Assembly (NCBI GenBank): GCA_016458225.1
Contig: JAEMGR010000010.1
Span: 1-59,968, forward strand
DNA from: Myxococcaceae bacterium JPH2
GTDB taxonomy: Bacteria > Myxococcota > Myxococcia > Myxococcales > Myxococcaceae
Length of the DNA stretch: 59,968 nt
Reading direction: 5' to 3'
Part shown: positions 1-24,306 of the stretch, piece after piece
Layout: each line of letters begins with the position of its first letter
Position numbering within the stretch: position 1 is the stretch's first letter
Position numbers and translations under genes: made by a program
The notes under the pieces: model-generated
What the model saw: only the letters and a program-made list of their open reading frames with translations
Told to the model about the DNA's origin: nothing
Database searches by the model: none

Positions 1-1490
1 GGCGCGAAGCTGGTGCGCCAGTTGGTTGGCCTGTGCGTCCACCTCCGCATACGTCAGTCGCGTCCCTTCCGACTCCACCGCCACGGCTTCGGGACGCTTC
101 GCCACCTGCTGCTCCACCAGGTGGTGCACCAGCTCGTCCCTCGGGTACTCCGCGGCGGTGTCGTTCCACGCCACCAGCACCTGCCCCCGCTCTGCCTCCG
201 TGAGGAGCGAGAGCTCGGACAGTGGCGCATCGGGAGAAGTCACGGCCCATTCCAGGACGCGCTGGAAGTGCTCGCTCATGCGAGCGACCGTGGAGGCCGC
301 AAACAGGTCGGTGCTGTACTCCAGGATGCCCTTGAGACCGTCCTCCGTCTCCGTGACATCGAGCGTGAGGTCGAACTTCGCGCCGAGACTCGGGATGGGC
401 TGCAGACTCACCTTCAGCCCCGGCAGCGTCACATCCGGAACCGGTACGTTCTGGAGCGCGACGAGCACCTGGAACAAGGGCGGACGTCGCTGTCCTCGGG
501 GAACGTCCATCACCTCCACGAGCTTCTCGAAGGGCACGTCCTGGTTCGCGTACGCGCCCAGGGCCATGCGCTTCACGCGCCCGAAGAAGGTCCGGAACGA
601 GGGATCGCCCGAGAGGTCCCCTCGCAACACCAGCGTGTTGACGAACAGGCCCAGCAGGCCCTCCAGCTCCTTGCGGTTGCGACCCGCGATGGGCGTGCCG
701 ACGGTGATGTCCTCCTGGCCGGAGTAGCGACCGAGGACAACCTGAAGCGCCGCGATGATGCCCATGAAGAGCGTGCCGCCCTCTCGCAACGCCACAGCCT
801 TGAGCTGCTCGGTGAGCGCCCGCGGCACGAGCACGGGCTGACTGGCCCCTCGGCCCGAAGGCTTCGCCGGGAGTGGGAAGTCCGTGGGCAACGCCAGTGC
901 GCCATTCACGCCGCGCAAGGCCTGCTTCCACCAACTCAACTGCGCTTCCAGCTCGGCGCCCTGGAGCCAGCCTCGCTGCCACAGCGCGAAGTCGACGTAT
1001 TGGAGGGGCGGCTCGGGGAGCTTCGTAGGCGCGCCCAGGCGACGCGCGGTGTAGAGCATCACCAGCTCGCGCGAGAGCACCGCGCCGGACCACCCGTCCG
1101 TGATGATGTGGTGGAGGACGAGCAACAGGACGTGCTCCTCCTCCCCCACCCGCAGCAAGGAGGCGCGCATCAGCGGCCCTTGCTCCAAGTCGAAGCGATG
1201 GAGGATCCGCTCGCGCAGAGCTGACAGCAGCTCGGTCTCGCGCCGAGCGGAGGGAACGTGGCGCAGGTCCACCTGCTCCAACGGGAGCGCCATCGAGGGG
1301 AAGACGTGCTGAATGGGCGCGTCGGCCGCGTGACGGTAGACCGTGCGCAGCACTTCATGTCGCACCACCAACTCCTGGAGCGACTTCTCCAGCGCGGCGA
1401 CATCCAGGGCGCCACTCAGGCGCAACGAGATGGGCGAGTGGTACGCAACGCTCGTCGGATCGAGCTGAGCGAGGTACCACAACCGCTGCT
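1..1490 (-). other. NRPS module: C domain and beginning of A domain (cut by window edge)
   Basis: The C domain starts PLSFGQQRLWYLAQLDPTS and has an intact HHIITDGWSG active site. It continues to GQEDITVGTPIAGRNRKELE and ends near 180. The following A domain is represented only by its first residues, ending RLTYAEVDAQANQLAHQLRA at base 1. The reading frame is open at the edge, so the synthase continues leftwards. Confidence 0.9.
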
Positions 1491-4400
1491 GTCCGAACGA
1501 AAGCGGCAGCGGCCCCGCGCGCGACACGCGGCGAATCGCACCACCCGGAGCGCCCGAGGCCAGCTCCGTGCCACGCGCGGATCCAGAGCCCTGGGACACA
1601 GCCGCAGCCACGTGCGAAGAGGCAGGGTGCGAGCGAGACGCGGATGACTCGCCCCGCGACTGAGCCGACGGAACACGCGGCGGGGACGAAGCCCCATGCA
1701 CGTCTGCGCCGGGCGCGCGCGGCACACTCGAGGATGGGCGTGCCACGACGGCGGACCGGCTGTCGGTGGCGGGTGGCTGGGTGACTCCTGGGCTGGGCGC
1801 CCGAGTCGAAGCGGGCCGCCGCGCAAGGTTCGCAAGAACCTCCACCTGCCCGTCCGCTCGGTATCGCGCCGAGACATGTGTGCCGTACAGGCGCGTCCCA
1901 TTTCCCTCGGGGGATCCAGGCAGGCGCGCACGCGAGCGTTCCGGATCATTCCAGAAGCCGATCGGTACGGCCTCGCCCCCTACGAACAACTCGCCCACCA
2001 CGCCCACCGGGGCACGACGCCCCGAGGCATCGAGCACGAACCGTGGCCCGTGGGTCTCGGTCGCCTGAGGCAACACGGGCACGGGAGAGACCACCCGCGC
2101 GGAGGCCGCCCGCTGGAGCGACGCGGCCAGCTCGACCGGGCTTCCCTCTGTCTCGTCCACGACCCACGTGCGCACCGAGCCCAGGCGCGCCTCGGCCTCG
2201 GGCAGGTTCGCGAGCGTTTGCGCGAACGCGGCGCCGCAGCGCAGATGCGCGGGCGACTCCGGGCGCAGCCAGTCCACCAGCGACGGACCCACGTCTTCGC
2301 GAGGCAGCACGAAGGAAGGACGCGCGCGGTCTCCCTGCACGCGGCGCCGCAGCGTGTCCAAGTGTCGCAGGCCCTCCATGGCCACGGCATGCGGGAGACC
2401 GAAGTCGACGAGGCACGCGACCTCATCCACGTCCGCCTGCCGGAGCTGCTCCATCCGCGCGACGAGCGAGTCCGGAGTGCCGAACAATCCGCCCGCCTCC
2501 AGGTAGCGCGTGACGCCCTGCTCCAGCAGCGTCTCCAGGTCCTGGGGCGACAGCTGTCGCACGTCGAAGCCCGAGCCCTGGCTGGCCACCAGTCCCTGGA
2601 TCAGCTCCACCGAGCTGCGGAAGTAGCGCAGCAACGGCTCGCGCGCGAGGCGGGCCACGTCCTCGCGGCGCTCCGTCACGAACGTATGCAGCATCAGGAC
2701 GACGTGGCCTCGGTCGTGGCCCGCCGCACGCCGCGCCGCCCGGTAGAGGGCCACCTTGCGGCCCAGCTCCTCGAAGTCCTGTCCCAGCCCGAGCACGTTG
2801 GTGAGCAACCCCGTGCCCAGCTCACCCGCCATCCGGAACGTCTCAGGGTTGAAGGCGGCGGTGATCCACAAGGGAAGCTCGGCTTGAACGGGCCGCGGGC
2901 GGATCGAGACGTCCACCTCGACTCCGGCGCCGTTGACACGGCGAATGGATCCACCCCGCCACAGCCTTCGCACCTCTTCCACGCCACGCCGCACGGCCTC
3001 TGGGCGCTGCTTGAAGTTCTCCGGAGCGAAGACGAAGTCGTTCGCGTTCCAACCCGTGGCAAAGGACACCCCCGCGCGTCCATCCGAGAGGTTGTCGATG
3101 ACGGACCACTCCTCGGCCACGCGCACGGTGTCGTGCAGCGGGAGCACGACGCTGCCGGCGCGCAGGGACACGCGCTCGGTGACCATGGCCAGCGCGGCGG
3201 TCGTCGTGGTCGGGCTGGGATAGGGACCACCGAAGGCGTGGAAGTGACGCTCGGGCGTCCACACCGCGCTGAAGTCATGCGTGTCAGCGAACTTCGCGCC
3301 GTCGAGCAGCAACTGGTACTTCTCGCGGCCCGCCGCGTCAGCGTCCGCCGCGAAGTAGAACAAGCTGAAGTCGAGCGTGCGCGAGCCTCCCGTGCGCCCT
3401 GCCACGGAGCGGTCCTCGGCCACGGCTCCGGCCACGACGACCTGGAGTCCACGCGTGAGCGCCCACAACGTCTCCAGCTCGGCGCCATCGCGCGCCAATT
3501 CGGGCGTCACGAGCCAGAGCTCCCCAGGGCTCGCGGACATGCGCGCATCGAGCAACGCGAACCGGTGCCCGAGGTTCTGGTGGCTCAGCACCACCCGCGC
3601 CGAGTCCTCGCCACCGTGCTCCGGCACGAGGCAGGCCATGCCCTCCACCTCCACGCGCGGCAGTGCCCATTCGCTCGACACCGTATCTGGCGCCAGCGGG
3701 AGTCGGGCGACCCGAACGCCCGCCAGCTCCGACGGAACCCGCACCGAGGCTCCCGCCACGAGCACCGCGGGTTGTCCCTCCAAGGCCAGGGACGCCACCG
3801 TGCTCCATTGCGTCGGCGTCACGAGCGCATAGGCACCTCCCGCCGCGAGCACGCCCCACAGCGCGACCGCGCGCTCGAGCGGCGAATCGACACAGACCGC
3901 CACGGGGATGCCCGAGCCCACGTCCAGGCGTCGCAACTGGGTCGCGAGCGCGAGCGCCTGCGTCCGCAAGGCGCGCCACGTCAGCGAGCGCGAACCCTCG
4001 CGCAGGGCCACCGCTTCGGGCTCGGCCTCCGCGCGAGCCAGGAGCAGCGCGGGAATGGAGGCGGACCCCAAGGACGCACCCGGCTCGGCGCGCTCCAGCG
4101 ACAGCCTCGACATCGCGAGGTCCGGAGACGCCATCGCGTCCGTCAGGAGCGCTTCCATCTGCGACAGCAGCCGCGCGATGGACGACGCATCGAACAAGTC
4201 GACCGCGTACTCGAGGATGCCGGAGAAGCCGTCCTCGTCCTGCCGCATGAGCACGGTGAGGTCCGCCAGCGCGGTGCCGTACTGCGCGGGAAGCTCGGTG
4301 ACGTCGAAGTAGCTCAGCCGCAGCCCGGGGAACTCGAGGATGGGCGCGGACACATCCTGGGTGTGCAGGAGGAAGACGGCGTCGAACAGGCGGGACAGCC

Positions 4401-7400
4401 CGCTCTCCTCGCCAGGCTCCAGCTCGCCCAGGAGCTGCTCGTAGGGAACATCCGGGTTCGCGAACGCGGACAGGGTCGTGTCGCGCACGCGGAGGGCCAG
4501 CTCGCGGAAGCTCGGGTCTCCCTCCAGAGAGGTCCGCAGCGCGAGGGCATGGGCGACGTAGCCGATCTGCGGCTCCAGCTCAGGCCGGGTGCGGTTGCCG
4601 ATGGACGTCCCCACCACGATGTCGTCCTGACCCGAGCACCGGGCCAGCAGCGCCTTGAAGCCCGCGAGCAGGGTCATGTACGGCGTGACGCCCTCACGCT
4701 GGCTGAACGCCTCCAGCGCGGTGCTGAGCCCCCGGGAGAACGCGAACGAGTGTCTCGCGCCGCGCCGCCGCGCCCCGGCCACGCGAGGCCGGTCGAGCGG
4801 CAGGGGCAGCGGCCCCGGTCGCCGAGCCAGCCGCTCCCGCCAATACGTCTGCTGCGATGACAGCGACCCGTCGACCACCGCTTGCCGCTGCCACGCGGCG
4901 AAGTCGATGTACTGGATGGGCAGCTCCGGCAATGCCACGGAGTGCCCGTGCACGAAGCCGGTGTAGAGCGCGACGGCCTCGCGGATGAAGTTCACCAGCG
5001 AGAGCGTGTCCGCGACGATGTGATGGATGGTGAGCAGCAACACATGCTCCGCATCCGCCAGGCGCAGCAGGTGGACGCGCACCAGCGGGCCCGCGTCCAA
5101 CGAGAACGGGGCAGCCGGATCGAGCCGCGCGCGCCGCATCGCCTCCGCCTCGCGGTCCCCCGCGAACTCGCGCAGGTCCACGACCGGCACCGAGATGCGA
5201 ACCTCCGAGAGGACGTGAGGCACCGCCCGGCCCGCCACGTCTCGGAAGACCGTGCGCAGGGACTCGTGACGACGGATGACGTCGTTGAAGGCGCGCTCCA
5301 ACAGCGGCACGCGCAAGTCACCCGTGATTCGGATCGCGAGCGGCTCGTTGAAGATGGAGCTGCCGGGCTCCTGCCGCTCCAGTTCCCAGACGCGAGCCTG
5401 GACGACGGAGAGGGGCAGCTCGCCGGTTCGAGGAATGGGCGCGATGGCCACGCCGGCCCTGGCGGCTTCGGGCGCATCCACCTGGAGGCGGGCCTCGATG
5501 CGCGCGGCGAGGCTCGCCACGGTGGGCGCCTCGAACAAGTCGCTCAGGGGAATCTGGACGCGGAACTCCTCGCGAAGGCGCGTGAGGAGCTGCGCCGCCA
5601 TGAGCGAGTTGCCGCCCAAGGCGAGGAAGTTGTCGTCCGGCCCGATGTCCTCCACGCCCAGGCGCTCGCGCCACAGCTCGGTCAGGCGCTGAGCGATGTC
5701 CCCGCGCGGCGCGGGCGGGGCGCTCGGGGCCACGACGACATCCGGAAGCGTCAGGGCAGGACGCACGACGTTCCGGGACTCGAAGGGATAGCCCGGGAGC
5801 GACACCCGATGGCGGCGCTCGTGCGCGAAGAAGCCTTCCCAATCCACCATCGCGCCGGCGCACCAGAGCGCCCCCAAGGACTCCAGCAGGGTCTGCTCAT
5901 CCGAGTTCGACGTGCCCTGCCGGCGCAGCGACGGCACCACGCGCGCGTCCCGCTGCGTCCGGAGCGCTGGACGCGCGAGCGTGGTGAGGTGCTGATCCGG
6001 TCCCGCCTCGATGAACCAGCGACACCCGGACTCGACCAACGTGGCGAGGCCCGCCGAGAAGCGCACGGGCTCACGCATCTGCCGAGCCCAGTACTCGGGC
6101 GAGATCGCTTCCTCGGGACGGATCCAGGTGCCGGTGAGGCTGGAGACGTAGGGAATGGACGGCGCGTTGAGCGTCAGGCCGGCCACGGCCTTCTCGAGCA
6201 ACGGCATCATCGGCTCCACCGCGCGGGAGTGGAACGCGTGCGCGGTCGCGATGGCCACCCTGCCCTCGCGCCGCTCCGCGAGCGCCTGCTCCAGGACCTC
6301 CAGTGCCTCGCGAGGTCCGGACACCGTGCAGCGATCGACCGCGTTGACGGCGGCGATCTCCACGCCCTCCGGCAACAGCGGACGCAGGGCCTCGACGGAC
6401 ATGCCCACCGCGAGCATGCCGCCCGGAGGCAGGCGGGACATCAGCTCGCCCCGCAGCACGGCCAGCGCGAGCGCGTCCTCCAGGGACAGGACGCCCGACA
6501 AACAGGCGGCCGCGTACTCACCAAAGCTGTGCCCCAACAACGCGCTGGGCTGGATGCCAAAGCCCATCCAGGTACGAGCGAGGGCGTACTCCACGGCCAG
6601 GAGCGCGGGCAGCGCGAAGCGGGGCTCTCGCAGGCGCGCCTCGGCCTCGGCCTCGCTCCCAGGCTCGGGGAAGAGCACCGCGCGCAGGTCCTCGGTCAGT
6701 CCAACAGTGGGGAGGATCTCCAGGCAGGCATCCAGCGCGCGCCGGAACGCGGGCTCGGACGAGTACAGGTCGCGCGCCATTCCAACCGACTGCGCGCCTT
6801 GCCCCGGGAAGAGGAACGCCACCTGCCGCGCTCGCGCCACCTCATTCGAGACGGCCTGCGCCGCCCGCCCCGGCTCCGCGAGCACGCGGGCCAGCTCCGC
6901 GCCATCCTCGACCACGACGGACTGGCGGAACTCGAAGGCCCGACGCCCCACGGCCCGGGTGTGGGCAAGATCCGCGAGGTCCACATCGGGGTGCGCGAGG
7001 ACATGGCGGGCCAGCTCTTGCCCCAGCGTCCTCAGCGCGCCTTCGCTCCTCGCCGACAAGGTGACGAGCTGTCGACCGCGAGAGCTGCCCATCGGCAACT
7101 CAGGCGGCGGCGCCTCCTCCAGCACGAGGTGCGCGTTGGTGCCGCCGATTCCGAAGGAACTGACGGCCGCGCGCCGAGGCACGTCGCCCCGAGGCCAGGG
7201 CCGCAGCGAGGTGTTCACGAAGAAGGGACCGCGCGAGAAGTCCACCTCGGGATTGGGCTGCTCGAAGTGAAGGCTGGGCGGCACCTCGCCGTGATGCAGT
7301 GACAGGACCGCCTTGATGAGGCCAGCCATGCCCGCGGCCGTGTCCAGGTGTCCGATGTTCGTCTTCACCGAGCCGAGGGCGCAGTAGCCCCGCTGCTCGG

Positions 7401-10400
7401 TGTGCGCGCGGAAGGCGCGGGTCAGCGCCGCGACCTCGATGGGGTCACCGAGCGAGGTCCCCGTGCCATGCGCCTCGACGAGCCCGATGGTGGAGGCGTC
7501 CACGTCCGCGGCGGCGAGCGCGCGCGAGATGACCTCGCGCTGCCCCTGAATGCTGGGCGCGGTGTAGCTGACCTTCGCATCGGCGTCGTTGTTGAGGGCC
7601 GAGCCCTTGATGACCGCGTAGACGGTGTCGCCGTCGCGCACCGCATCCGCGAGGCGCTTGAGCACCACCACGCCCAACCCATTGCCCAGCACGGTGCCCC
7701 GCGCGCGGGCATCGAATGCGCGGCAGTGCCCGTCCGGAGAGAGGATCATCCCCTCCTGGAAGAGGTAGCCCGTGCGCTGAGGCAGCGACACCTTCACCGC
7801 GCCCGCGAGCCCCACGTCGGACTGGCGCGTGCGCAAGCTCTGGCAGGCGAGGTGCACCGCGACGAGGCCCGTGGAGCAGGCGGTGTAGACGTTGAGGCTC
7901 TCGCCGGAGAGCTTGAGCTTGTAGGCCGTCTTGGTGGCCACGTTCTCGCCGGTCGTGGTGCCGAGCGCCTCGAACAGAGCCGCTGGCTCCTTCTTCGTCT
8001 GGCCGAGGAGCGACAGGAGGTGCCCTCCCGACGAGCCCGCGCCGGCATACAGCGAGATGGCGCCCAGGACGCGCTGCGCGTCGTAGCCCGCGTCCTCCAA
8101 CGCATGCCACGCGCACTCCAGGAAGAGGCGCTGCTGCGGATCCATCCACTCGGCCTCGCGCGGGGAGACCTCGAAGAAGCCCGCATCGAAGTCGTCGGCG
8201 CCATCCAGCACGCCCCCCGCCGGCACGAAGTCCGGATGCTCTCGCATCGCGGCGGACAACAGCGGCGAGTCCTCCAGCTCCTCGGCGGAGAAGCGCGAGA
8301 TGGACTCCACCCCCTGCCGCAGGTTCTCCCAGAAGGCCTTCACGTCCTTGGCCCCAGGGAACCGGCCCGCCATGCCGACGATGGCGATGTCTCGCCCTTC
8401 CCCTTCGGTTCTCACCTCGGTCTCGGAGCGGCGTGGCGCGCGAGGCTCGGGCTCCACCCGCTCGCGCTCCAAGCGCGCGGCGAGCGCGTGCACCGTCGGA
8501 TGCTCGAAGAAGTGCGTGACGGGGACCTCGCGCCCCAGCTCGGCGCGAAGCTGGGTGCTGGCCTTCACCACGGTCAGCGAGCTGCCTCCGAGCGCCTCGA
8601 AGAAGTGGTCATGCATGCCCACTCGGGGTACCTGGAGCACCCGCGCCCAGACCCCCGCGATGGTCCGCTCCAGCTCGGTCGTCGGCTCGACGGACTCCGG
8701 TGCGGCAGCGGCTGCGAGGGGCTCGTGCTCCGGCAAGGAGCGACGGTCGACCTTTCCTCCTGGCGTCAGCGGCAGGTGCTCCAGCCGCATGAAGAACGAG
8801 GGCACCCACGCATCCGGGAGCCGCTCGCGCAGGAAGCGACGCAACGTCCCCGCGTCCAGCTCTCCCTCGCCCACGACATAGGCCGTCAGGCGCGTCTCCC
8901 CTCCACGCTCGTGGGGGACGACCACGGCCTGTCGAACACCGGGGTGTCGGGACAGGGCGGCCTCGACCTCGCCCAGCTCGATGCGGATGCCGCGGACCTT
9001 CACCTGCGCGTCGCGGCGCCCGACGAACTCCAGGCGACCATCGGCGAGCTGACACACCATGTCCCCGGTCCGATACAGCCGCTCCCCCGGGTCCTGCGTG
9101 AAGGGATGGGGCACGAAGCGCTCGGCGGTGAGCGCGGGCTGGTTCAGATAGCCGCGCCCCACGCCGATGCCGCCCACGCACAGCTCACCCGGTACGCCCA
9201 CGGGCACCGGCTGCATGTCGCGATCGAGCACGTACACGCGCGCGCCCGCGAGGGCCCGCCCGATGGACGGACGCCGAGGATCCACCTCCAGCTCCACGGT
9301 CGCGCAGATGGAGACCTCGGTGGGCCCGTAGCCGTCCAGGAAGCGCCGGCCGGCCTGCCACGCGGCGGCCAACTCCGGCGTGCAGGCCTCGCCCACGGAG
9401 GCGACCACCCCGAGCGCCGGCAGCGCGGACGGACTCAGCTGCGCGAGCGAGGTGGGCGTCGCGATCAACACGTCGATGCGCTGCGCTCCCAATACCTCCT
9501 GCAAGGCGGGACCCGCCAGGAGCGTGCCGGGAGGCGCGAACACCAGCTCCGCGCCCGAGCACAGCGCGGTGAACACCTCGCACACGGAGGCATCGAACCC
9601 GAAGGACGCGAGCTGGAGGATGCGCCGCCCTGGCCCCAGGCCGAGCGCCTCACCGAACGCGACCGCCGTATTGCTCAGCCCCCGGTGCTCGATGAGCGCG
9701 CCCTTGGGCGTTCCCGTCGAGCCGGAGGTGAAGAGGACATAGGCCAGGTGCTCGGGAGACACCGAGGACTCGGGCGCGGACTCCGGGAAGCGAGCGATCG
9801 CGCTCGCATCCGCGTCGAGCAGCACCAGCATCTCACCGCTCGTGCCCAGCTCGTCCGCCAGCGCCTCCTGGCTGATCAGCACGGGCACACGGGCTTCGCC
9901 CAGCATGGCCGCAAGACGACCGGGGGGATACGACGTGTCGAGCGGCAGGAAGGCGCCACCCGCCTTCAACACGCCCAGCAGCGCCACCACCAGCTCGGGC
10001 GTGCGCTCCAGATACACGCCCACCCGGACCTCGGGCCCCACGCCCACCGAGCGCAGGTGCGCCGCGAGCTGATTGGCGCGGGCATCCAGCTCCCGATACG
10101 ACCAGGACCGCGTCCCCAGCGTGAGCGCGGGACCGCCGGGAGTCCGCCGCGCCCAGGCCTCGACATGGTGGTGCGCGCATCGGGCGGGAGCCGCGGGGCT
10201 CGTGTGGCTCCACTCGAGCAGCGCGCGCTGGCGCTCCTCGGGCGTCAACATCGACAGCTCGGAGACGCGACGCTCGGGCTCCGCCACGGCGCCCACGAGG
10301 AGCATCTCCAGGTGACGCAGCATGCGCGCCACCGTGTCCGCGTCGAAGAGGTCCGTGGCGTACTCGCACAGCAGCTCGACACCCGTGGCCGTCTCGGTCA

Positions 10401-13400
10401 CGCAGAGCGTGAGGTCCAGCTTCGTCGCGCCTGTGTCGCCCAGGCTGCCTTCGAGCGTCAGTCCACCCGGCAGGCGCGCCGAAGTGGGCAGCGCCTCCTG
10501 GAGCACCAGCTTCACCTGGAACACGGGCGCATGGGACAGGCTGCGCTCCGGGTTGAGGGCGCGGACCAGCTCGTCGAAGGGCAGGTCCTGGTGCGCCCAC
10601 GCGGCGAGCGCCTCGTCATGGAGTCGCGCGAGCACCTCGCGGAAGCTCGGCGCGCCGGAGAAGTCGCCACGCAGAGGGAGCTGGTTGACGAACAGGCCCA
10701 GCAGCCCCGCGAGCTCCGGGCGCGCACGGTGCGCGGCGTCCACGCCGACGACGAGATCCTCCTGTCCCGAGTAGCGATGAAGCAGGAGCTGAAACCCCGC
10801 CAACAACGTCACGAAGGGCGTGGTGCCGCCATGGCGCGCCAGCGCGCGCACCTGCTCCCAGGTCGACAACTCCAAGCGGCGGCGCACCTGCGCGCCTCGG
10901 TAGGACTGGACAGCGGGACGAGGACGATCGCCACGCAACTCCAAGACCGGTGGAGTTCCAGCCAGGTGCTCGCGCCACCAGGAGATCAACGTCTCCAAGC
11001 GGGTGCCCTGGAGCCACTGCCGCTGCCAGATGGCGTAGTCGCCGAACTGCACGGGAGGGTCGGCAAGCACGGGCGCGCGCCGCTCCAGCGCCGCCGCATA
11101 GAGCTCACCCAGCTCCCCCACCAGCACCCGCATGGAGCCGCCGTCCGTGACGAGGTGATGCATCGTCAGGAGCAACACGTGGCGCTCGGACTCCAAACGC
11201 AACAGCGTGGCGCGGAGCAGCGGGCCTTGTCCCAGGTCGAACGGGCGACGGGCCTCCTCGCGCGCCAGCCGGAGGACCTCGGCCTCGCGCGCGGCCTCGG
11301 GCGACGAGGACAGCTCCACGACGGGTAGCGCCAACGCCACGGACTCGAGGACGCGAGCCAGGGGCTCGCCCTTCGCGTCCTCCGCGACGACCATGCGGAG
11401 CACTTCATGCCGCCGCGTCAGCGCTCGCAGTCCGCGCTCCAGCGCCGAGGCATCCAAGCGCCCCGCCAGCCGCGCCACCACCGGGACGTTGTAGAACGCG
11501 CTTCCGGGTTCCAGGCGCTCGAGGAACCACAAGCGCTGCTGCGCGAATGACAGGGGCGGTGACCCACCCGCTGGACGCCGAGGAATGGCCTCACGAGCAG
11601 GCTCGCGCGTCCGGCGCGCGGCGATCTCCCGCACCAATTCAGCGGCGCTCGCGCCCCGGAGCAGGGACTCCATGGGGATCGCGACGCCCAGGTCCCGCTC
11701 CAGGCCGTGCGCCAACTCCACGGCGGCGAGCGAGTCGAGTCCGTATCGCGTGAGCGGGACATCGGACTCCAGCGCCTCCACCCGGGAGCCCAGCCGCGCG
11801 GCGATGCGCGCGAGCACGGACGACTCCAGCGACGGCAGCTCCCCCTCCGCGAGCGCATCCGCGGCCTCGCGAGACTCGAAGCTCCCCGCTCGCCACACGT
11901 GCAGCTCGCGCAGCTCACCAGCCAGGAAGGCCTCACGGCTCGCGGCGCGCCGCACCTTCCCGCTGGAGGTCTTCGGCAGGCTCCCCGGATCGATGAGCAC
12001 GAGCGCGGCGGGGAGCACCTCGTGCACCTCCGACAGCCGCTGACGGATCGCGCCCGCGACGTCGTCGATGGAGCCCTCCAGCTTGCGTGCGTCCACCTCC
12101 TGCACCACCACCAGCCGCTCCTCGCCCTCCAGGTCGAGGGCGAAGGCCGCGCCACACCCGGGCCGGAGCGCCGGGTGGCTCTGCTCCACCGTCAGCTCCA
12201 GGTCCTGCGGATACAGGTTGCGTCCGCGCAGGATGATGAGGTCCTTCTTCCGGCCCGTGACGTAGAGCATCCCCGCGTCGAGGAACCCCAGGTCCCCCGT
12301 CCGCAGGAACGGCCCCTCTCCGCTCGCGAGGTGCGCCTGGAAGACCTCGCGGGACTGCTCGTCGCGTCGCCAGTAGCCCCGGGCCACGCTGGGCCCTCGG
12401 ACCCAGATCTCTCCCACGTCCCCCTGGGCGCGGACTCGCGCCGTCTCGGGGTCCACGACGAGGACCTCCTGCGACGACAGCGTCCTGCCGCTGCCCACCA
12501 GCACGCGACCTTCCCCGAGGACCGGCGCCGCGTGCCCCTGCTCCAGCGCCTGGATGTCCACGCGCCGCAAGCGAGGCGGCTCGGCCTTCACGCCGCCCGT
12601 GACGATGAGACTGGCCTCGGCCAGGCCGTAGCAGGGATAGAGCGACTCGCGCCGGAAGCCGTGCGGCGCGAAGGCGTCGGTGAAGCGCTGCAGCGTCTCG
12701 GCGCGGATGGGCTCGGCGCCGCAGAAGGCCACCTCCCAGCGGCTCAGGTCCAGCCCTTCTCGCTCCGCCACGGGGATGCGACGCGTGCACAGCTCGAAGG
12801 CGAAGTTGGGTCCGCCGCTGATGGTTCCGCCGAAGCGCGTGAGCGCCTCCAGCCAGAAGCGAGGGCGCTTGAGGAAGGCCAGCGGCGACATCAGCGCGGT
12901 GTGGAAGCCCTGCGCCAGCGGCACCAGGATGCCGCCGATGAGCCCCATGTCGTGATACGGCGGCAACCAGATGACACCCACGCTGTCGTCACGCGTCTGA
13001 AACGCACCGCGTATCAACCCGAGGTTGTGCAGCAGGTTGCGGTGGCTCAGCATCACGCCCTTCGGCGTGCCGGTGGAGCCCGAGGTGTACTGGAGAAACG
13101 CGAGCGACTCCGCCGAGACCTCCGGACGTCTCCACCCCGTCTCGTGCTCCAGCTCCGGCGCATCCGTCGCCACCCAGCGCAGCGCGCGCAGGTCCGGTGC
13201 GTCCTGGGTGAGGAACTCCGCCATCTCCGCGATGACGGACGTGGTGAGCACCACCGTCGCGCCCGAGTCCTCGACGATGGCGCGCAGTCGAGGCAGCGTG
13301 CGCTCCAGCCGCGTGGGGTCCGGCGGATACGCCGGCACCGCGACACATCCCGAGTAGAGACAGCCGAAGAAGCCCGCCACGTACTCGACGCCTGGCGGAT

Positions 13401-13599
13401 ACAGCAGCACCGCGCGCTCCCCCGCCGAGGCCACCGACTGGAGCCGCGCGGCGATCCTTCGTGCGCGCGCGGCGAGCCCGTCGCTCGTGAGGGTCGCCTC
13501 GCCTCCCGGTTCATCCTCCAGGAACGTGTACAGGCGCTGCGAGGCGTGGGTGACGCTTCGCTCTTCGAGGAGTTCGATGAGAGTGCTGGGCTCGGTCAT
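1..13599 (-). CDS. Giant hybrid NRPS/PKS with fatty-acyl-AMP ligase loading module (3' end outside window)
   Basis: One reading frame runs without a stop from the ATG at 13597-13599 to the left edge, giving at least 4533 residues; the gene continues beyond base 1. Reading frame was checked directly at the FAAL core, each carrier-protein serine, the KS cysteine and the condensation motifs, all in the same frame. Domain order: FAAL (1-555), T (Ser623), C (680-1115), A (1130-1620), T (Ser1674), KS (1737-2170), AT (2253-2570), T (Ser2665), C (2728-3160), degenerate A with luciferase-like monooxygenase insert (3180-3925), Ser/Ala/Pro-rich linker (3930-4035), C (4039-4480), start of A. The product should be a lipopeptide with one polyketide extension; a FAAL loads a fatty acid directly on the first carrier protein. 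It is divergent from the siderophore operon across a 323-bp gap. The product is not recognisable from this part alone; I see some resemblance to the MSL-containing NRPS of myxobacteria such as myxothiazol MtaG, but not the same architecture. Confidence 0.95.
   Translation of the reverse strand, partial: [4533 protein letters not shown]
1500..1814 (-). other. Low-complexity Ser/Ala/Pro/Arg-rich inter-module linker
   Basis: About 105 residues with no recognisable fold lie between the monooxygenase-bearing unit and the following C domain. The composition is dominated by Ser, Ala, Pro, Gly and Arg (for example [19 protein letters not shown]). A carrier protein would normally sit here; no LGxxS motif is present in the reading frame. 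It may act as a flexible tether. Confidence 0.75.
1815..5425 (-). other. Condensation domain plus degenerate adenylation domain with luciferase-like monooxygenase (MSL/MOX) insert
   Basis: The C domain carries HHIVADT instead of HHxxxDG; the catalytic His pair and Asp are kept. The next domain begins like an A domain ([18 protein letters not shown]), but where the P-loop TSGSTGxPKG should stand it reads [20 protein letters not shown], so the AMP-binding loop is lost. An FMN-type bacterial luciferase-like domain of about 340 residues is inserted (2385-3380), with [12 protein letters not shown] and FATGWNAND motifs typical of the MSL family found in NRPS such as MtaG. The A-domain remainder keeps [17 protein letters not shown] but lacks the A8 and A10 motifs. 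No carrier protein follows. Inference: the unit probably oxidises an intermediate bound to a neighbouring carrier rather than adding an amino acid. Confidence 0.82.
5470..8400 (-). other. PKS module: KS-AT-T, no reductive domains
   Basis: The ketosynthase begins [12 protein letters not shown] (residue 1737) and carries the catalytic Cys1908 in [14 protein letters not shown] (His2044) and the NIGH motif. The acyltransferase has FPGQGAQ, GHSFGEY (Ser2358) and HAFHS, the last being the usual mark of malonyl-CoA rather than methylmalonyl-CoA specificity. The carrier protein has [10 protein letters not shown] (Ser2665). There is no KR, DH or ER between AT and T, so a beta-keto group is expected after extension unless another enzyme modifies it. 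Confidence 0.9.
8490..11565 (-). other. NRPS module 1: C-A-T
   Basis: The condensation domain starts with [17 protein letters not shown] and carries an intact HHLVTDGG active site (His814-His815, Asp819). The adenylation domain has [11 protein letters not shown] (near 1290), the YGPTE region and the catalytic lysine in GGKVDRRSL (Lys1616). The carrier has [10 protein letters not shown] with predicted Ser1674. All catalytic motifs are present, so this module should accept the fatty acyl starter and add one amino acid. The substrate-pocket residues begin with the usual Asp-Ala pair, but I cannot assign the amino acid with confidence. Confidence 0.88.
11580..13599 (-). other. Loading module: FAAL plus carrier protein domain
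   Basis: Residues 1-555 are a fatty acyl-AMP ligase: the core reads [20 protein letters not shown], followed by [13 protein letters not shown] and the catalytic lysine in [11 protein letters not shown] near residue 550. The YHDMGL stretch and start immediately at the N-terminus are typical of FAALs that begin lipopeptide synthases. The carrier protein follows with [12 protein letters not shown]; Ser623 (codon at 11731-11733) is the predicted phosphopantetheine site. Inference: the enzyme activates a free fatty acid as acyl-AMP and passes it to this carrier, so the peptide starts N-acylated. Confidence 0.9.
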
Positions 13600-13922
13600 G
13601 GCGAGAGACACGCGGGCTGTCTTTCTGCGGTTCCCTCAATAGCCGAGACTTCATTCATTTCGCCAATGTCTTGAGAAAAGACAGACAGGCGAACCCACGG
13701 CTCGGTCCAGGCTCACAGCAACCGTGAAGCTCCAACGGCAATCGGCACCTTCGCGCGACATCAACGTGAACCAGACAACACTGTGACTCCGCGCATGGGC
13801 GGACTCTTGACACGCTTCCCGCGACGTGGCACTAAGGCGCCCAATAACGATAATGAGAACCATTCTCACTATCCCCACCTCCCAGCCCCGGACGCCCCCG
13901 GAGAACAGGCGCGCGGCACCCG
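13600..13922. other. Divergent promoter region between NRPS/PKS and mxcC
   Basis: This 323-base gap has no convincing gene. It is visibly more AT-rich than the flanking coding DNA. It holds a TTGACA (13807-13812) that could be a -35 element toward mxcC, a Fur-box-like palindrome (13849-13873), and a small hairpin TGTCTT-GAGAA-AAGACA (13667-13683) in the presumed leader of the NRPS transcript. Confidence 0.7.
13849..13873. promoter_or_regulatory. Fur box upstream of mxcC
   Basis: GATAATGAGAACCATTCTC (13849-13867) matches the 19-base Fur consensus GATAATGATAATCATTATC at 16 positions. It contains the perfect inverted repeat TGAGAA-CCA-TTCTCA. It lies 50 bases before the mxcC start, downstream of the TTGACA, where a bound repressor would block transcription. 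Iron control of myxochelin genes is established in related species; control of the divergent NRPS by the same site is inference. Confidence 0.85.
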
Positions 13923-14696
13923 ATGGAACAGCAGATACGCGTGGCCCTCGTGACGGGGGCCGCTCAGGGGATTGGTGCGTCCGTCGCTCGGGCGCTCGCC
14001 GAGGAAGGCCGCGTCGCCGCCCTGGACCGGAATGCGGAGCGACTGGGCGCCACCGCGCGGGAGCTGCGCGCCCGGGGGCTCGACGTCACGGGCTTCCCCG
14101 TGGACGTGAGTGACCGCGCCTCGGTGGACGCCGCCGTCGATCGCGTCGAACGGGAGCTGGGCCCCATCGCGGTGCTCGCCAACGTCGCTGGCATACTGCG
14201 CGTATCACCCGCTCTCTCAATCACAGACGAGGACTGGGCGGCCACGTTCGCGGTGAACACGCAGGGCGTCTTTCATGTCTCGCGCGCGGTGGCGCAACGC
14301 ATGGTGCCGCGACGGGCCGGTTGTATTGTCACGGTTGCGTCCAATGCTTCTGGAGTTCCCCGGATAGGGATGGCCGCCTACTCCGCCTCCAAGGCAGCCT
14401 CGGCGATGTTCACCAAGTGTCTGGGATTGGAGCTGGCGCCCCACGGCATCCGCTGCAACGTCGTGTCGCCCGGCTCCACCGACACGGCCATGCAGCGCGC
14501 GCTCTGGCCGGACGAACAGGGTGGTCAGGCGGTCATCGCCGGTTCCCTGGAGGCGTTCCGACTGGGCATCCCACTGGGACGCATCGCCTCCCCCGACGAC
14601 ATCGCCGAGGCCGTGCGCTTCCTCGCCTCGGACCGGGCGCGCCACATCACCCTGCATGACCTCTGCGTGGATGGTGGCGCCACGCTGGGGGTCTAG
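13923..14696 (+). CDS. mxcC: 2,3-dihydro-2,3-dihydroxybenzoate dehydrogenase (MxcC/EntA)
   Basis: A 257-residue short-chain dehydrogenase that oxidises 2,3-dihydro-2,3-dihydroxybenzoate to 2,3-dihydroxybenzoate with NAD+, the last step of the aryl precursor pathway. The N-terminal Rossmann motif VTGAAQGIG is at residues 10-18, and the catalytic YSASK is near residue 153. Length is usual for EntA. It is first in an operon with isochorismate synthase, DHB-AMP ligase and isochorismatase, which makes the EntA role secure even though SDRs are hard to tell apart by sequence alone. The start at 13923 was chosen because homology begins directly after it; no close Shine-Dalgarno is evident. A Fur-type operator lies 50 bases upstream. 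Confidence 0.93.
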
Positions 14697-14717
14697 CGTC
14701 TTCGTGTATCCATCAAT

Positions 14718-14732
14718 TGAGAATGATTACTA
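14718..14732. promoter_or_regulatory. Possible second Fur box between mxcC and mxcD
   Basis: TGAGAATGATTACTA matches 11 of 14 defined positions of the 7-1-7 Fur model TGATAAT-N-ATTATCA. It lies in the 64-base gap, about 30 bases before the mxcD start. It could give mxcD onward a second iron-controlled promoter. The right half is imperfect. Confidence 0.45.
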
Positions 14733-14760
14733 GTTCCAACTTCATGATGGGAGTTCCGCG

Positions 14761-15986
14761 ATGAGGACGGTGGAGCAGCAGGCCCAGGCGCCCCGCATGC
14801 TGGCCGCGCAGTTGTTGCAGAGCTACGAGCCGGGCTCATCGTTCTTCTTCGCGACGCCGCGGCGCACGTTGCTGGCGCGTGGCACCTTCGCGACGGTGCC
14901 GTGCTCGGGAGGGCCGGACGCGCTCGCGCACCTCCCCTCTCGCGTGGCGACCGTGCTGCACGACGCGCGACAGGCGGCGCACGACATCCCCGTCGTCGTG
15001 GGCGCAGTTCCCTTCGATGGCTCGGCGCCCGCGCAGCTCGTGGTGCCCATGACCCTCCAGCGTGCGGGCCCCCTGGAGTTCGACACCCAGTCGCCCGCGC
15101 ACCGCCCGCTCCAGGCTCGCTACACGGTGCGGCCGGTGCCCGAGCCCACCGTCTACCTGAACGGCGTCGCACAGGCCCTGGAGCTGATGCGCAGCGGGCC
15201 GCTTCGCAAAGTGGTCTTGTCGCGCGCCCTGGACCTGGAGGCCGCGGGCCCCATCGACCTTCAGCAGCTCCTGCACAACCTCGCGCGGCGCAACCCCACG
15301 GGCTACACGTTCGCGGCGGACCTCCCCATGGCGCGAAGCGGCGCACCCGGCACGGGGAGACGGACGCTGATTGGCGCCAGCCCCGAGCTGCTGGTCTCGC
15401 GCTCCGGGCTCCAGGTCCTCGCCAATCCGCTGGCGGGCTCCGCCGCGCGGTCCGCGGATCCAGTGGAGGACCAGGCGCGGGCCAACGCGCTGCGCTCCTC
15501 GCCCAAGGACCTGCACGAGCACGCGGTGGTCATCGACGCCGTCGCGGAGGCCCTCCGTCCGTACTGCACGACGCTGGAAGTGCCTGAGGCCCCATCGCTC
15601 GTGAGCACGTCCACGATGTGGCACCTCTCCAGTCGGATCCGCGGAGATCTGCGCGACCCGGCCATCTCGTCGCTGATGCTGGCCACCGCCCTGCACCCCA
15701 CCCCCGCCGTGTGCGGCTTCCCCACGCGGCTGGCGCACGAAGCGATTGGCCACATCGAGCCATTCGCGCGGGGCTACTACACCGGCACGGTGGGCTGGTG
15801 CGACGCCACGGGAGACGGGCAGTGGGCGGTGACCATCCGCTGCGCCGAGGCGGACGCGCACACGCTCCGACTGTTCGCGGGCGCGGGCATCGTGGCGGGT
15901 TCCCGCCCGGAGTCAGAGCTGGCGGAGACCGAGGCCAAGTTCCGCACCATGCTCCAGGCCATGGGTCTGGGCTCCGAGGTGCAGGC

Positions 15987-15990
<4 letters not shown>
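14761..15990 (+). CDS. mxcD: Isochorismate synthase (MxcD/EntC)
   Basis: A 409-residue chorismate-binding enzyme that isomerises chorismate to isochorismate, the first committed step to 2,3-dihydroxybenzoate. The C-terminal two thirds show the conserved family pattern: [10 protein letters not shown] near residue 150, ASPELLVSR near 205, [13 protein letters not shown] near 305 and a C-terminal [17 protein letters not shown]. Length and motifs fit siderophore isochorismate synthases such as EntC and DhbC rather than anthranilate synthase. The stop overlaps the next start in a GTGA arrangement, so mxcD and mxcE are probably translationally coupled. The ATG at 14761 follows GGGAGTTCCGCG. Confidence 0.95.
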
Positions 15991-17624
<1,634 letters not shown>

Positions 17625-17641
17625 GCAGAAAGGTCCCCACC

Positions 17642-18541
17642 ATGGCGCTCCCCATCATCGCTCCCTATCCCATGCCCGGCGTCGCCGACCTCCCTCGCAA
17701 CAAGGTCTCTTGGACGCCCGACCCGCGCCGCGCGGTGCTGCTCATCCACGACATGCAGCGCTACTTCGTGGACGTCTTCACGGCGGACCAGTCCCCCGTC
17801 AAGGAGCTGGTCGCGAACATCCAGCGGCTGCGGCAGCGCTGCCTCGCGCTGGGAATCCCCGTCGTGTACTCGGCGCAGCCCGGAGGACAGACCTCCGAGC
17901 AGCGCGGCCTCCTGCTCGACTTCTGGGGCGCGGGCGTCAGCGACGGCCACCACAAGAAAGACATCATCGACGCGCTCACGCCGGGCGAGGGAGACATCCG
18001 CCTCACCAAGTGGCGCTACAGCGCGTTCCGCAAGACGCCGCTCATGGACATCATGCGCGAGCGCGGACGCGATCAGATCCTCATCTGCGGCATCTACGCG
18101 CACATCGGCTGCCTCCAGACGGCCAGCGATGCCTTCATGAGCGACGTGCGTCCGTTCCTCGTCGCGGATGCCTTGGGCGACTTCTCGCTTGAGCACCACC
18201 AGCTCGCGCTGAACTACGCCTCGCAGCTCTGCGCGGTGACGGCCACGACGCAGCAGCTGCTCGAACAGCTCGGTCCCGCGCCCCAGGCCGCGCTGAGCCG
18301 CGAGCGGATCCGCGAGGAGGTCGCCGAGCTGCTCCAGCAGTCCGCCAGCGACCTCGGAGATGACGACAACCTCCTCGACCGCGGGCTCGACTCCATTCGC
18401 ATCATGAGCCTGGTGGAGCGGTGGCGGAGCACGGGCGCCGAGGTCACCTTCGTCGATCTCGCCGAGCGGCCCTCGCTCACCGAGTGGTTCGGCCTGCTCC
18501 GCGCGCCCTCCGCGTCCCCCCATCCGTCCCCTTCGACCTGA
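17642..18541 (+). CDS. mxcF: Isochorismatase with C-terminal aryl carrier protein (MxcF/EntB)
   Basis: A bifunctional protein of 299 residues. Residues 1-210 form the isochorismatase, which cleaves isochorismate to 2,3-dihydro-2,3-dihydroxybenzoate and pyruvate; catalytic landmarks are the Asp in LLIHDMQRYF, the Lys in RLTKWRYSAF and CGIYAHIGCL. Residues 225-290 form the aryl carrier domain, with the phosphopantetheine serine in RGLDSIRIMSL. It accepts the dihydroxybenzoyl group from MxcE and presents it to the C domain of MxcG. A short gap of 17 bases separates it from mxcE and 6 bases from mxcG, so all are cotranscribed. Confidence 0.95.
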   Translation: MALPIIAPYPMPGVADLPRNKVSWTPDPRRAVLLIHDMQRYFVDVFTADQSPVKELVANIQRLRQRCLALGIPVVYSAQPGGQTSEQRGLLLDFWGAGVSDGHHKKDIIDALTPGEGDIRLTKWRYSAFRKTPLMDIMRERGRDQILICGIYAHIGCLQTASDAFMSDVRPFLVADALGDFSLEHHQLALNYASQLCAVTATTQQLLEQLGPAPQAALSRERIREEVAELLQQSASDLGDDDNLLDRGLDSIRIMSLVERWRSTGAEVTFVDLAERPSLTEWFGLLRAPSASPHPSPST

Positions 18542-18547
18542 GTCCCC

Positions 18548-22917
<4,370 letters not shown>

Positions 22918-22918
<1 letters not shown>

Positions 22919-24291
22919 TGAATCGAAACTGGACCCCTCGCTCGTGGCGGGAGAAGCCGGCGGGCTACATGCCGGATGACTATCCGGACCTCCGAGCGCT
23001 GCGGCGCACCGAGGAGGAACTCACGCGCCTGCCACCGTTGGTGTTCCCCAACGACGCGCGCCGCCTGACCACCGCGCTCGCGCGGGTCACCGAGGGAAAG
23101 GCGCTGCTGCTCCAGGGCGGTGACTGCGCCGAGAGCTTCAAGGAGTTCACCACCGACAACCTCCGGGACACCTTCCGCCTCATCGTCCAGATGGCGCTGG
23201 TGCTGACGTTCGCGGGGGGACGTCCCGTCGTGCGCGTCGGACGCATCGCGGGCCAGTTCGCCAAGCCGCGCTCGAGCCCCCTGGAGACTCAAGGCGGCAC
23301 CACCCTGCCCAGCTATCGCGGCGACATCATCAACGGCATGGAGTTCACCGCCGAGGCGCGCACGCCCGATCCCCGGCGACTCGTCCAGGCCTATCACCAG
23401 TCGTCGGCCACGCTGAACCTGCTGCGCGCGTTCTCCCAGGGCAGCTACGCGGACCTCTGCAATCTCCACCGCTGGACGCTCGACTTCGTCGCAGCCAGCC
23501 CGCAAGGCGATCGCTATCGCGAGCTGGCGGACAAGGTCTTCGAGTCGCTGTGCTTCATGCAGGCGCTCGGCCTCCCATCGGAGTCACCGCCCGTGCTCGG
23601 CCCCGTGGATGTCTTCACCAGCCACGAGGCGCTCCTCCTCAATTTCGAGGAGGCGATGACCCGCGCCGACCTCGCGTCCGGGGACTGGTTCGATTTGTCC
23701 GCCCACATGCTGTGGGTGGGCGAGCGCACCCGGCAGCCCGACGGCGCTCACGTGGAGTTCCTCCGCGGCATCAAGAATCCCATCGGACTCAAGTGCGGCC
23801 CCACGATGGCGCCGGACGAACTGTTGCGCCTGATGGATGTCCTGAACCCTCAGGGCATCGCGGGACGCCTCACGCTCATCGGGCGCTTCGGCGCGGAGTT
23901 CATCGAGGAGCGGCTGCCGGCCCTGATGGCCGCCACGCGCCAGGATGGCCGCCCCGTCATCTGGTCCATCGACCCGATGCACGGCAACACCCACAAGGCG
24001 AGCAACGGCTACAAGACGCGCGCCTTCGACAGCATCGTCTCCGAGGTGACGTCCTTCCTGCAGATCGCCGCGGGAGAGGGCGTCCATCCAGGTGGGCTCC
24101 ACCTCGAGATGACGGGCCAGAACGTCACCGAGTGCCTGGGCGGATCCCTGCCGGTCACCGAGGCCGACCTGTCCAGCCGCTACCACACCCACTGCGACCC
24201 TCGCCTCAACGCGGACCAGGCCCTCCAACTCGCCTTCGTCGTCGCGGACACGCTGCACTCCCAACGGGCCCCTCGCGCCCGCGCCGCCTGA
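22918..24291 (+). CDS. aroA5: Class II 3-deoxy-D-arabino-heptulosonate 7-phosphate synthase
   Basis: A 457-residue class II (plant-type) DAHP synthase, which condenses phosphoenolpyruvate with erythrose 4-phosphate at the entrance of the shikimate pathway. Conserved stretches include [37 protein letters not shown] and [14 protein letters not shown]. The ATG overlaps the mxcG stop as TGATG, so it is translated with the siderophore synthetase. A copy at this exact place (aroA-A5) is known from the Stigmatella myxochelin cluster. Role inferred: raising chorismate supply when iron is limiting, under the same control as the siderophore genes. Confidence 0.95.
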
Positions 24292-24306
24292 GCGCACGGG
24301 TTCCTC

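What the first reader, a model, noticed from the sequence alone, without database searches (positions are those of the whole stretch)
1815..5425. Degenerate adenylation domain kept as a carrier for a luciferase-like monooxygenase
The A domain has lost its ATP loop (VPEHGGEDSARVVLSHQN in place of the TSGSTG motif), lacks A8 and A10, and is not followed by a carrier protein, yet the monooxygenase insert looks intact. In the known case MtaG, the host A domain is active and followed by T. Here the module seems to have become a pure oxidising unit, possibly acting on the beta-ketoacyl or peptidyl chain on the preceding KS-AT-T module.
Basis: partly seen in the sequence, partly recalled or inferred. 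Interest (0 to 1): 0.6.

Follow-up and report, generated by a model that had tools for sequence, protein, structure and literature searches.

The report
Eroded NRPS module reduced to oxidase
Soil-predator bacteria (myxobacteria) repeatedly carry a peptide-assembly module that has lost its amino-acid-loading machinery but keeps an oxygen-adding enzyme and a specialised helper domain, apparently to oxidise the growing chain handed over by the step before it.

Summary
The module at 1815-5425 (minus strand) is C*-[A*::MSL::A*] with no carrier, right after KS-AT-T. The same cassette occurs twice more in this genome and widely in its family.

Ordinary MSL modules (type I, C-A::MSL::A-T) keep A3 (52 of 52 distinct) and a glycine-like code (49 of 49 read). 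The window type (II) lost both: A3 in 0 of 59. All 59 follow (KS-)AT-T in frame; the AT motif is malonyl-like. No ketoreductase was found in the window or in four loci tested, whereas 7 of 7 tested PKS modules before type I have one. Type II has its own C-domain subtype with HHxxxDT (64 of 64; type I 0 of 52). In three loci of two genomes the adenylation shell is nearly or fully deleted and C*-MSL remains. So the shell looks dispensable; C* and MSL are the working parts.

Best reading: the MSL now oxidises the alpha-CH2 of a beta-ketoacyl-S-T instead of glycyl-S-T. The nearest solved structure, PuwE (6ket), is assigned alpha-oxidation at a like place. The chemistry is inferred; the role of C* is open. 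New variant of a known kind.

The parts
5497..5691 (-). T domain of the KS-AT-T module, presumed carrier of the MSL substrate
   Evidence: Pfam PP-binding 2641-2705; LGGNS site
7261..8394 (-). KS domain
   Evidence: Pfam ketoacyl-synt 1740-1990 and Ketoacyl-synt_C 1998-2117
5902..6816 (-). AT domain, HAFH motif (malonyl-like); 70 aa to the T with no Pfam hit, so no KR/DH/ER/AMT
   Evidence: Pfam Acyl_transf_1 2266-2570; motif survey; gap scanned
4162..5421 (-). C* condensation-like domain with HHIVADT (5005-5025) and VAH in place of FVN (4549-4557)
3382..4119 (-). A* N-terminal remnant of the adenylation core; A3 replaced (3574-3627), A4 weakened
2341..3381 (-). MSL: TIGR04020 FMN-dependent luciferase-like monooxygenase domain, full length
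1816..2340 (-). A* remnant (A6-like, broken A7); A5, A8-A10 missing
1522..1815 (-). Pro/Ser/Arg-rich linker where the C-terminal A subdomain and T would be
   Evidence: no AMP-binding_C or PP-binding hit
181..1512 (-). next, ordinary C domain (HHIITDG), presumed acceptor of the oxidised chain
   Evidence: Pfam Condensation 4035-4477
11902..13587 (-). FAAL that starts the chain
   Evidence: fatty acyl-AMP ligase models
8476..11832 (-). T-C-A-T domains between the FAAL and the PKS module; A code DACIAVGIC

Best explanation
A C-A::MSL::A-T module of the kind that loads and oxidises glycine came to stand after a ketoreductase-free, malonyl-extending module and lost its own substrate supply (ATP loop, binding code, A subdomain, T). 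What works now is C* plus MSL. The beta-ketoacyl chain stays on the T of KS-AT-T. C* (a specialised, probably non-condensing C domain) holds or gates that T. MSL, with FMNH2 and O2, oxidises the alpha-CH2 next to the thioester to an alpha-hydroxy (possibly alpha-oxo) beta-ketoacyl chain, which the next C domain passes on. The substrate logic is conserved: peptidyl-NH-CH2-CO-S-T and R-CO-CH2-CO-S-T both offer an activated alpha-CH2. Shown here: architecture, losses, context, missing ketoreductase, C* subtype, selection, shell deletions. Inferred: direction of the change, substrate, reaction and the role of C*.
For: Context: all 59 distinct type II MSLs follow KS-AT-T (35) or AT-T where the fetched stretch ends upstream (24) in the same ORF. 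Beta-keto: no KR, DH or AMT by Pfam between AT and T in the window or in four loci with large gaps, but a KR in 7 of 7 PKS modules tested that precede type I modules. Substrate analogy: 49 of 49 type I codes glycine-like; AT motifs of type II 68 HAFH, 4 QAFH, 2 YAFH of 74 (motif meanings recalled). Precedent: PuwE, nearest solved structure (6ket, E 1e-105; Z 44.1, rmsd 2.3, 345 aligned), lies in a KS-AT-T/AMT/MSL/NRPS protein credited with the 3-amino-2-hydroxy unit (PMC4219810, passages); similar claims in PMC13252402 and PMC8739492 (passages). KS-AT-T-AMT-MSL-C also occurs in the family (L141, L142; AMT by Pfam in L141). Function kept: dN/dS to the sister 0.06 MSL, 0.09 C*, 0.10 KS-AT, 0.36 and 0.22 A* parts. 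Shell absent or nearly so: L045, L129, L134. 45 MSL residues are invariant in 46 type I and 73 type II/III/cut rows, window included.
Against: No assay or product was found. PKS modules also precede some type I modules: L135 in the same ORF, and L036, L059, L069, L071 with the PKS ending the gene just upstream (L070, L074, L080 with a C stretch after it), so a PKS upstream is not exclusive to type II; 34 of 52 type I modules begin their ORF and 13 of these have no upstream domain in my stretch. C* retains both His and the Asp, so it may still be catalytic. Type I A domains also evolve faster than their MSL (7 of 7 hand-picked pairs), so extra relaxation of A* is modest. Fold neighbours include Baeyer-Villiger enzymes (4uwm). 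That type II derives from type I rests on a weakly supported tree (81/0).
Confidence: 0.7

Rival explanations
1. The MSL is a Baeyer-Villiger oxygenase that inserts oxygen beside the beta-keto group, giving an ester in the backbone.
For: Fold neighbours include type II Baeyer-Villiger enzymes (4uwm, 5aec); oxygen insertion at beta-keto thioesters by a different flavin monooxygenase is described for trans-AT lines (PMC8262917, passages).
Against: The nearest solved relative by sequence and fold, the PuwE domain (48% identity in the fold alignment), is credited with alpha-hydroxylation; MOx domains in glycine A domains hydroxylate the alpha carbon (PMC11342130, passages).
Confidence: 0.12
2. The MSL oxidises an aminoacyl or peptidyl substrate on a downstream or trans carrier instead of the PKS-bound chain.
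For: In type I the carrier lies downstream of the MSL; the next module supplies a carrier.
Against: Downstream A codes vary widely among type II loci (41 read) while the upstream unreduced KS-AT-T does not.
Confidence: 0.1
3. Dead module: C*, A* and MSL are all vestigial and skipped.
For: A3, A5, A7 Asp, A8-A10 and T are lost; one locus (L128) has a frame break between C* and A*.
Against: dN/dS 0.06-0.09 for MSL and C*; 54 of 96 family genomes hold a match stronger (E at most 2.1e-271) than the best type I module that I examined (L135, 1.0e-246); C*-MSL survives where the shell is deleted.
Confidence: 0.04
4. A* is still needed, in most lines, as a structural clamp that positions MSL beside C* (compatible with the best explanation).
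For: A* folds as an A core in the model (Z 35.3, rmsd 3.6, 362 aligned to 6ltb) and is still under purifying selection.
Against: Three loci persist in frame without it or nearly so. The model's alignment included 18 intact type I A domains.
Confidence: 0.25

Closest known systems
MtaG/MelG-type C-A::MOx::A-T modules (myxothiazol, melithiazol)
   Same: oxygenase domain nested inside an A domain; the type I loci I read fit this description (identity of MtaG itself was not tested)
   Different: Those recruit glycine and carry a T (PMC11342130, passages); here ATP loop, code, A subdomain and T are gone and the substrate must come from elsewhere, most likely the PKS module before it
PuwE (puwainaphycin synthetase; 6ket) and kin with KS-AT-T-AMT-MSL-C
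   Same: MSL lies after an unreduced KS-AT-T and before a C domain; 48% identity in the fold alignment
   Different: PuwE has an aminotransferase (PMC4219810, passages); the window has C* and an A shell and no aminotransferase
X domain of glycopeptide synthetases
   Same: C-superfamily domain not followed by its own carrier and associated with an oxygenase
   Different: X domains have a mutated catalytic site and recruit P450s in trans (PMC8949500, passages); C* keeps HH and D and sits beside a flavin oxygenase in cis

Membership tests
TIGR04020 luciferase-like monooxygenase domain | profile score over the curated cut-off | tested here: met
   477.2 bits, cut-off 244.45
MtaG-type C-A::MOx::A-T module | MOx nested within an A domain | tested here: met
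   A* remnants flank the MSL
MtaG-type C-A::MOx::A-T module | adenylation motifs and glycine code intact | tested here: not met
   A3, A5 and A7 Asp lost in the window; type I modules keep the code (49 of 49 read)
MtaG-type C-A::MOx::A-T module | own carrier protein follows | tested here: not met
   no T between MSL and next C
PuwE-type PKS-AMT-MSL | unreduced KS-AT-T directly upstream | tested here: met
PuwE-type PKS-AMT-MSL | aminotransferase between T and MSL | tested here: not met
   window has C* there and no aminotransferase; L141 has one by Pfam
X domain | C-fold with altered HHxxxDG site | tested here: inconclusive
   only the G is changed (HHxxxDT, 64 of 64); plus VAH for FVN
X domain | docks an oxygenase to the carrier | not testable with these tools
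   needs binding assays

The most novel reading that the evidence does not exclude
C* is a new functional subtype of the condensation-domain superfamily (HHxxxDT plus VAH and further fixed replacements) that no longer makes peptide bonds but presents, or even activates, a beta-ketoacyl-S-T for an in-cis flavin oxygenase. A complete NRPS module has thus been converted into a carrier-less oxidation station and in some lineages is shedding its adenylation shell.
Probability: 0.4. Interest if true: 0.75.

Novelty: new variant of a known kind. Interest (0 to 1): 0.58.

Why it matters
It offers an explanation for a frequent carrier-less module in myxobacterial NRPS-PKS lines, gives sequence marks (HHxxxDT, VAH, no A3, unreduced KS-AT-T upstream) that would let genome-mining tools predict an oxidised ketide instead of an extra amino acid, and shows a graded natural series (active module, eroded shell, shell nearly or fully gone) of how an NRPS module may become a tailoring unit, which is useful for engineering.

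Tried and rejected
Sequencing or frame error: rejected, since the sister genome and other loci agree. Trans-loading of A*: no T to load. Baeyer-Villiger and downstream-substrate readings are kept as rivals. My first context claim, that type I never follows a PKS, held only within one ORF (0 of 46) and fell on recheck: L135 and at least four loci with the PKS in the gene before.

I tried to confirm that the type II cassette is in the myxoprincomide synthetase MXAN_3779. The primary paper is not held. That its product holds a 2-oxo-beta-leucine unit is my recollection; one search for that name gave no paper.

The relaxation test was weaker than hoped: A faster than MSL in 16 of 16 type II pairs but also in 7 of 7 type I pairs, pairs picked by hand; A* C-part faster than MSL in 12 of 16. 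Counts hold repeats of one locus fetched through two collections (for example L045/L139, L017/L090, L010/L125); one search counts distinct MSL sequences. Dropped: five MSL ORFs without a preceding C (L051, L059, L061, L071, L087) and L001, L002, L003, L005, 14 MSL hits without a preceding C in the ORF. Literature: ten searches in an open-access library; I opened twelve papers, as passages, and one section of one of them; the type II cassette did not appear in what I saw, which does not prove it is unpublished.
Full report
OBSERVATION. The window is contig C10:1-59968 of a 9.0-Mb genome. A minus-strand ORF of 4537 aa starts at 13611 and runs off the contig end. Pfam and NCBIfam give FAAL-T-C-A-T-KS-AT-T-C-[A-like::MSL::A-like]-C-A. 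The MSL scores 477 bits to TIGR04020. The host A domain has no TSGSTG, no NxYGPTE, no Asp in A7, a weakened A4, no C-terminal subdomain, and no carrier follows.

NOT A ONE-OFF. The same genome has two more MSLs over the cut-off in giant ORFs, on contigs C60 and C45. Both show KS-AT-T-C*-[A*::MSL::A*]-C with no TSGSTG and no T, 45-50% identical to the window. A scan of named genomes gave 80 loci, which I parsed with home-made profiles. In one search, of 81 MSLs with a C before them, 46 were type I (C-A::MSL::A-AC-T, all with A3) and 35 T-less (none with A3); 2 of the 35 run off the contig end, so their lack of T is not proven, and one (L045) is the shell-less form below. After more fetching, distinct MSL sequences number 52 type I (A3 in 52), 59 type II (A3 in 0), 3 type III and 2 cut. 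Type I loci come from many phyla. T-less loci come from this genome, from Myxococcaceae/Archangiaceae records and from a record named Comamonas sp. KCTC 72670, probably mislabelled. In 147 genomes of the class, 60 match the window cassette at E<=1e-150, all in the window's family. In that family 60 of 96 genomes match at E<=1e-200, a level that type I modules also reach; 54 of 96 have a match of E<=2.1e-271, beyond the best type I module that I examined (L135, 1.0e-246).

CONTEXT. All 59 distinct type II MSLs follow KS-AT-T (35) or AT-T cut by the end of the fetched stretch (24) in the same ORF; 3 of 3 type III and 2 of 2 cut ones follow KS-AT-T. Type I is mixed: of 52, 34 begin their ORF, 1 follows KS-AT-T in its ORF (L135), and 17 follow other carriers. 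Of the 34, L036, L059, L069 and L071 have an upstream gene ending in KS-AT-T, and L070, L074 and L080 one ending in KS-AT-T plus a C stretch; 13 have no upstream domain in my stretch. The PKS modules differ: those before type I have 587-1246 aa between AT and T in the eight loci measured, and all 7 scanned hold a KR (L071 not scanned). Before type II the gap is 61-268 aa, median 84, in 43 loci (repeats included). The window's 70 aa give no Pfam hit, and KS-to-C* stretches of L029, L033, L035 and L043, which have large gaps, show no KR, DH or aminotransferase.

THE C DOMAIN. HHxxxDT occurs in 64 of 64 distinct T-less cassettes and 0 of 52 type I. C after an MSL: 0 of 44. Other C: 2 of 187, and those two are C* domains cut from their MSL by a frame break (L128) and by my stretch boundary (L131). 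C* is one clade (18 of 18 sampled rows, SH-aLRT 100, 76-row quick tree). It has fixed replacements elsewhere, for example VAH where others have FVN (40 C* against 120 other C).

EROSION SERIES. In L045 and L134 the A* shell is gone and in L129 nearly gone (a short remnant stays after the MSL): C* and MSL are joined by about 35 aa and the frame continues to the next C. The tree nests them among type II and needs 3 changes of state (2 forced by starred branches), so a single loss without regain is not favoured. Types II and III with the two cut rows form one group in the MSL tree, but weakly (81/0); the direction from type I to II is inference.

SELECTION. Window against its sister (L096): dN/dS KS-AT 0.10 (42% of the stretch covered), C* 0.09, MSL 0.06, next C 0.10 (72% covered), A* N-part 0.36, A* C-part 0.22, linker 0.38 (57% covered). 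In 16 further hand-picked type II pairs the A* N-part is faster than both MSL and C* in 16 of 16, and the A* C-part than MSL in 12 of 16. The type I control shows A faster than MSL in 7 of 7 as well, so the extra relaxation is modest. In the close pair C* is as constrained as KS-AT. A* is weakly constrained, as a shell would be.

STRUCTURE. A predicted model of A*-MSL-A* (786 aa, pLDDT 83.7, pTM 0.57) matches 6ket (PuwE oxygenase domain) with Z 44.1, rmsd 2.3, 345 aligned, and A cores such as 6ltb with Z 35.3, rmsd 3.6, 362 aligned over both flanks. The relative placing of the two folds is uncertain, and the alignment included 18 intact A domains.

MECHANISM. Type I A domains carry a glycine-like code in 49 of 49 read (code recalled), in line with MOx domains in glycine-recruiting A domains that hydroxylate the alpha carbon (PMC11342130, passages). 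Type II lost that supply. The upstream AT has a malonyl-like motif (68 HAFH, 4 QAFH, 2 YAFH of 74) and no ketoreductase was found, so the chain should be an unreduced beta-ketoacyl thioester. The alpha-CH2 of R-CO-CH2-CO-S-T is the analogue of that of R-CO-NH-CH2-CO-S-T. PuwE, credited with part in making a 3-amino-2-hydroxy unit, has its oxygenase at a like place (PMC4219810, passages), and two genomes of this family have KS-AT-T-AMT-MSL-C (L141, L142; AMT by Pfam in L141). I therefore propose alpha-oxidation of the KS-AT-T-bound beta-ketoacyl chain, with C* as holder of the carrier. The reaction and the role of C* are inference. X domains (PMC8949500, passages) are an analogy, not a membership.

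NOVELTY. MSL-in-A modules and PKS-linked MSLs are known. The carrier-less, adenylation-dead version with its own C subtype is a new variant; I did not see it in the open-access material searched (calls listed under Tried and rejected). If the myxoprincomide synthetase holds it, part of this may be in a paper I could not read.

Noticed in passing
window 13923-26493 (+): Genes fitting a myxochelin-like siderophore cluster (SDR, chorismate-binding enzyme, AMP ligase, isochorismatase-carrier, NRPS with reductase, DAHP synthase, TonB receptor) lie next to the NRPS-PKS gene; PMC4902038 lists 'lipopeptide + myxochelin' together in M. xanthus (passages).
   Followed up: partly
window 1-209 and L007 11692-11900: The ends of contigs C10 and C60 share 209 bases at 97% identity inside an A domain, so near-repeats may have broken the assembly and hide the rest of both genes.
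   Followed up: partly
L017/L090 and L091 (G001:C22): A type II and a type I MSL module lie about 18 kb apart on one strand in M. xanthus AM003, perhaps in one assembly line.
   Followed up: partly
L091, L136, L137, L138, L140: Type I MSL modules after an A-like-T start (FAAL not tested) sit early in long lines with further modules after them, which fits poorly with a chain-cleaving role as described for myxothiazol.
   Followed up: no
L135 (G008): A type I module follows a KR-bearing KS-AT-T in one ORF within the window's family: a possible picture of the arrangement before type II arose.
   Followed up: partly
L027, L034, L042: A genome titled Comamonas sp. KCTC 72670 carries myxobacterial-type NRPS genes in at least three places; the label is probably wrong.
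   Followed up: no
L128 around the C*-A* junction: A frame break splits the NRPS gene between C* and A* in genome G069; real or a sequencing error is not known.
   Followed up: partly
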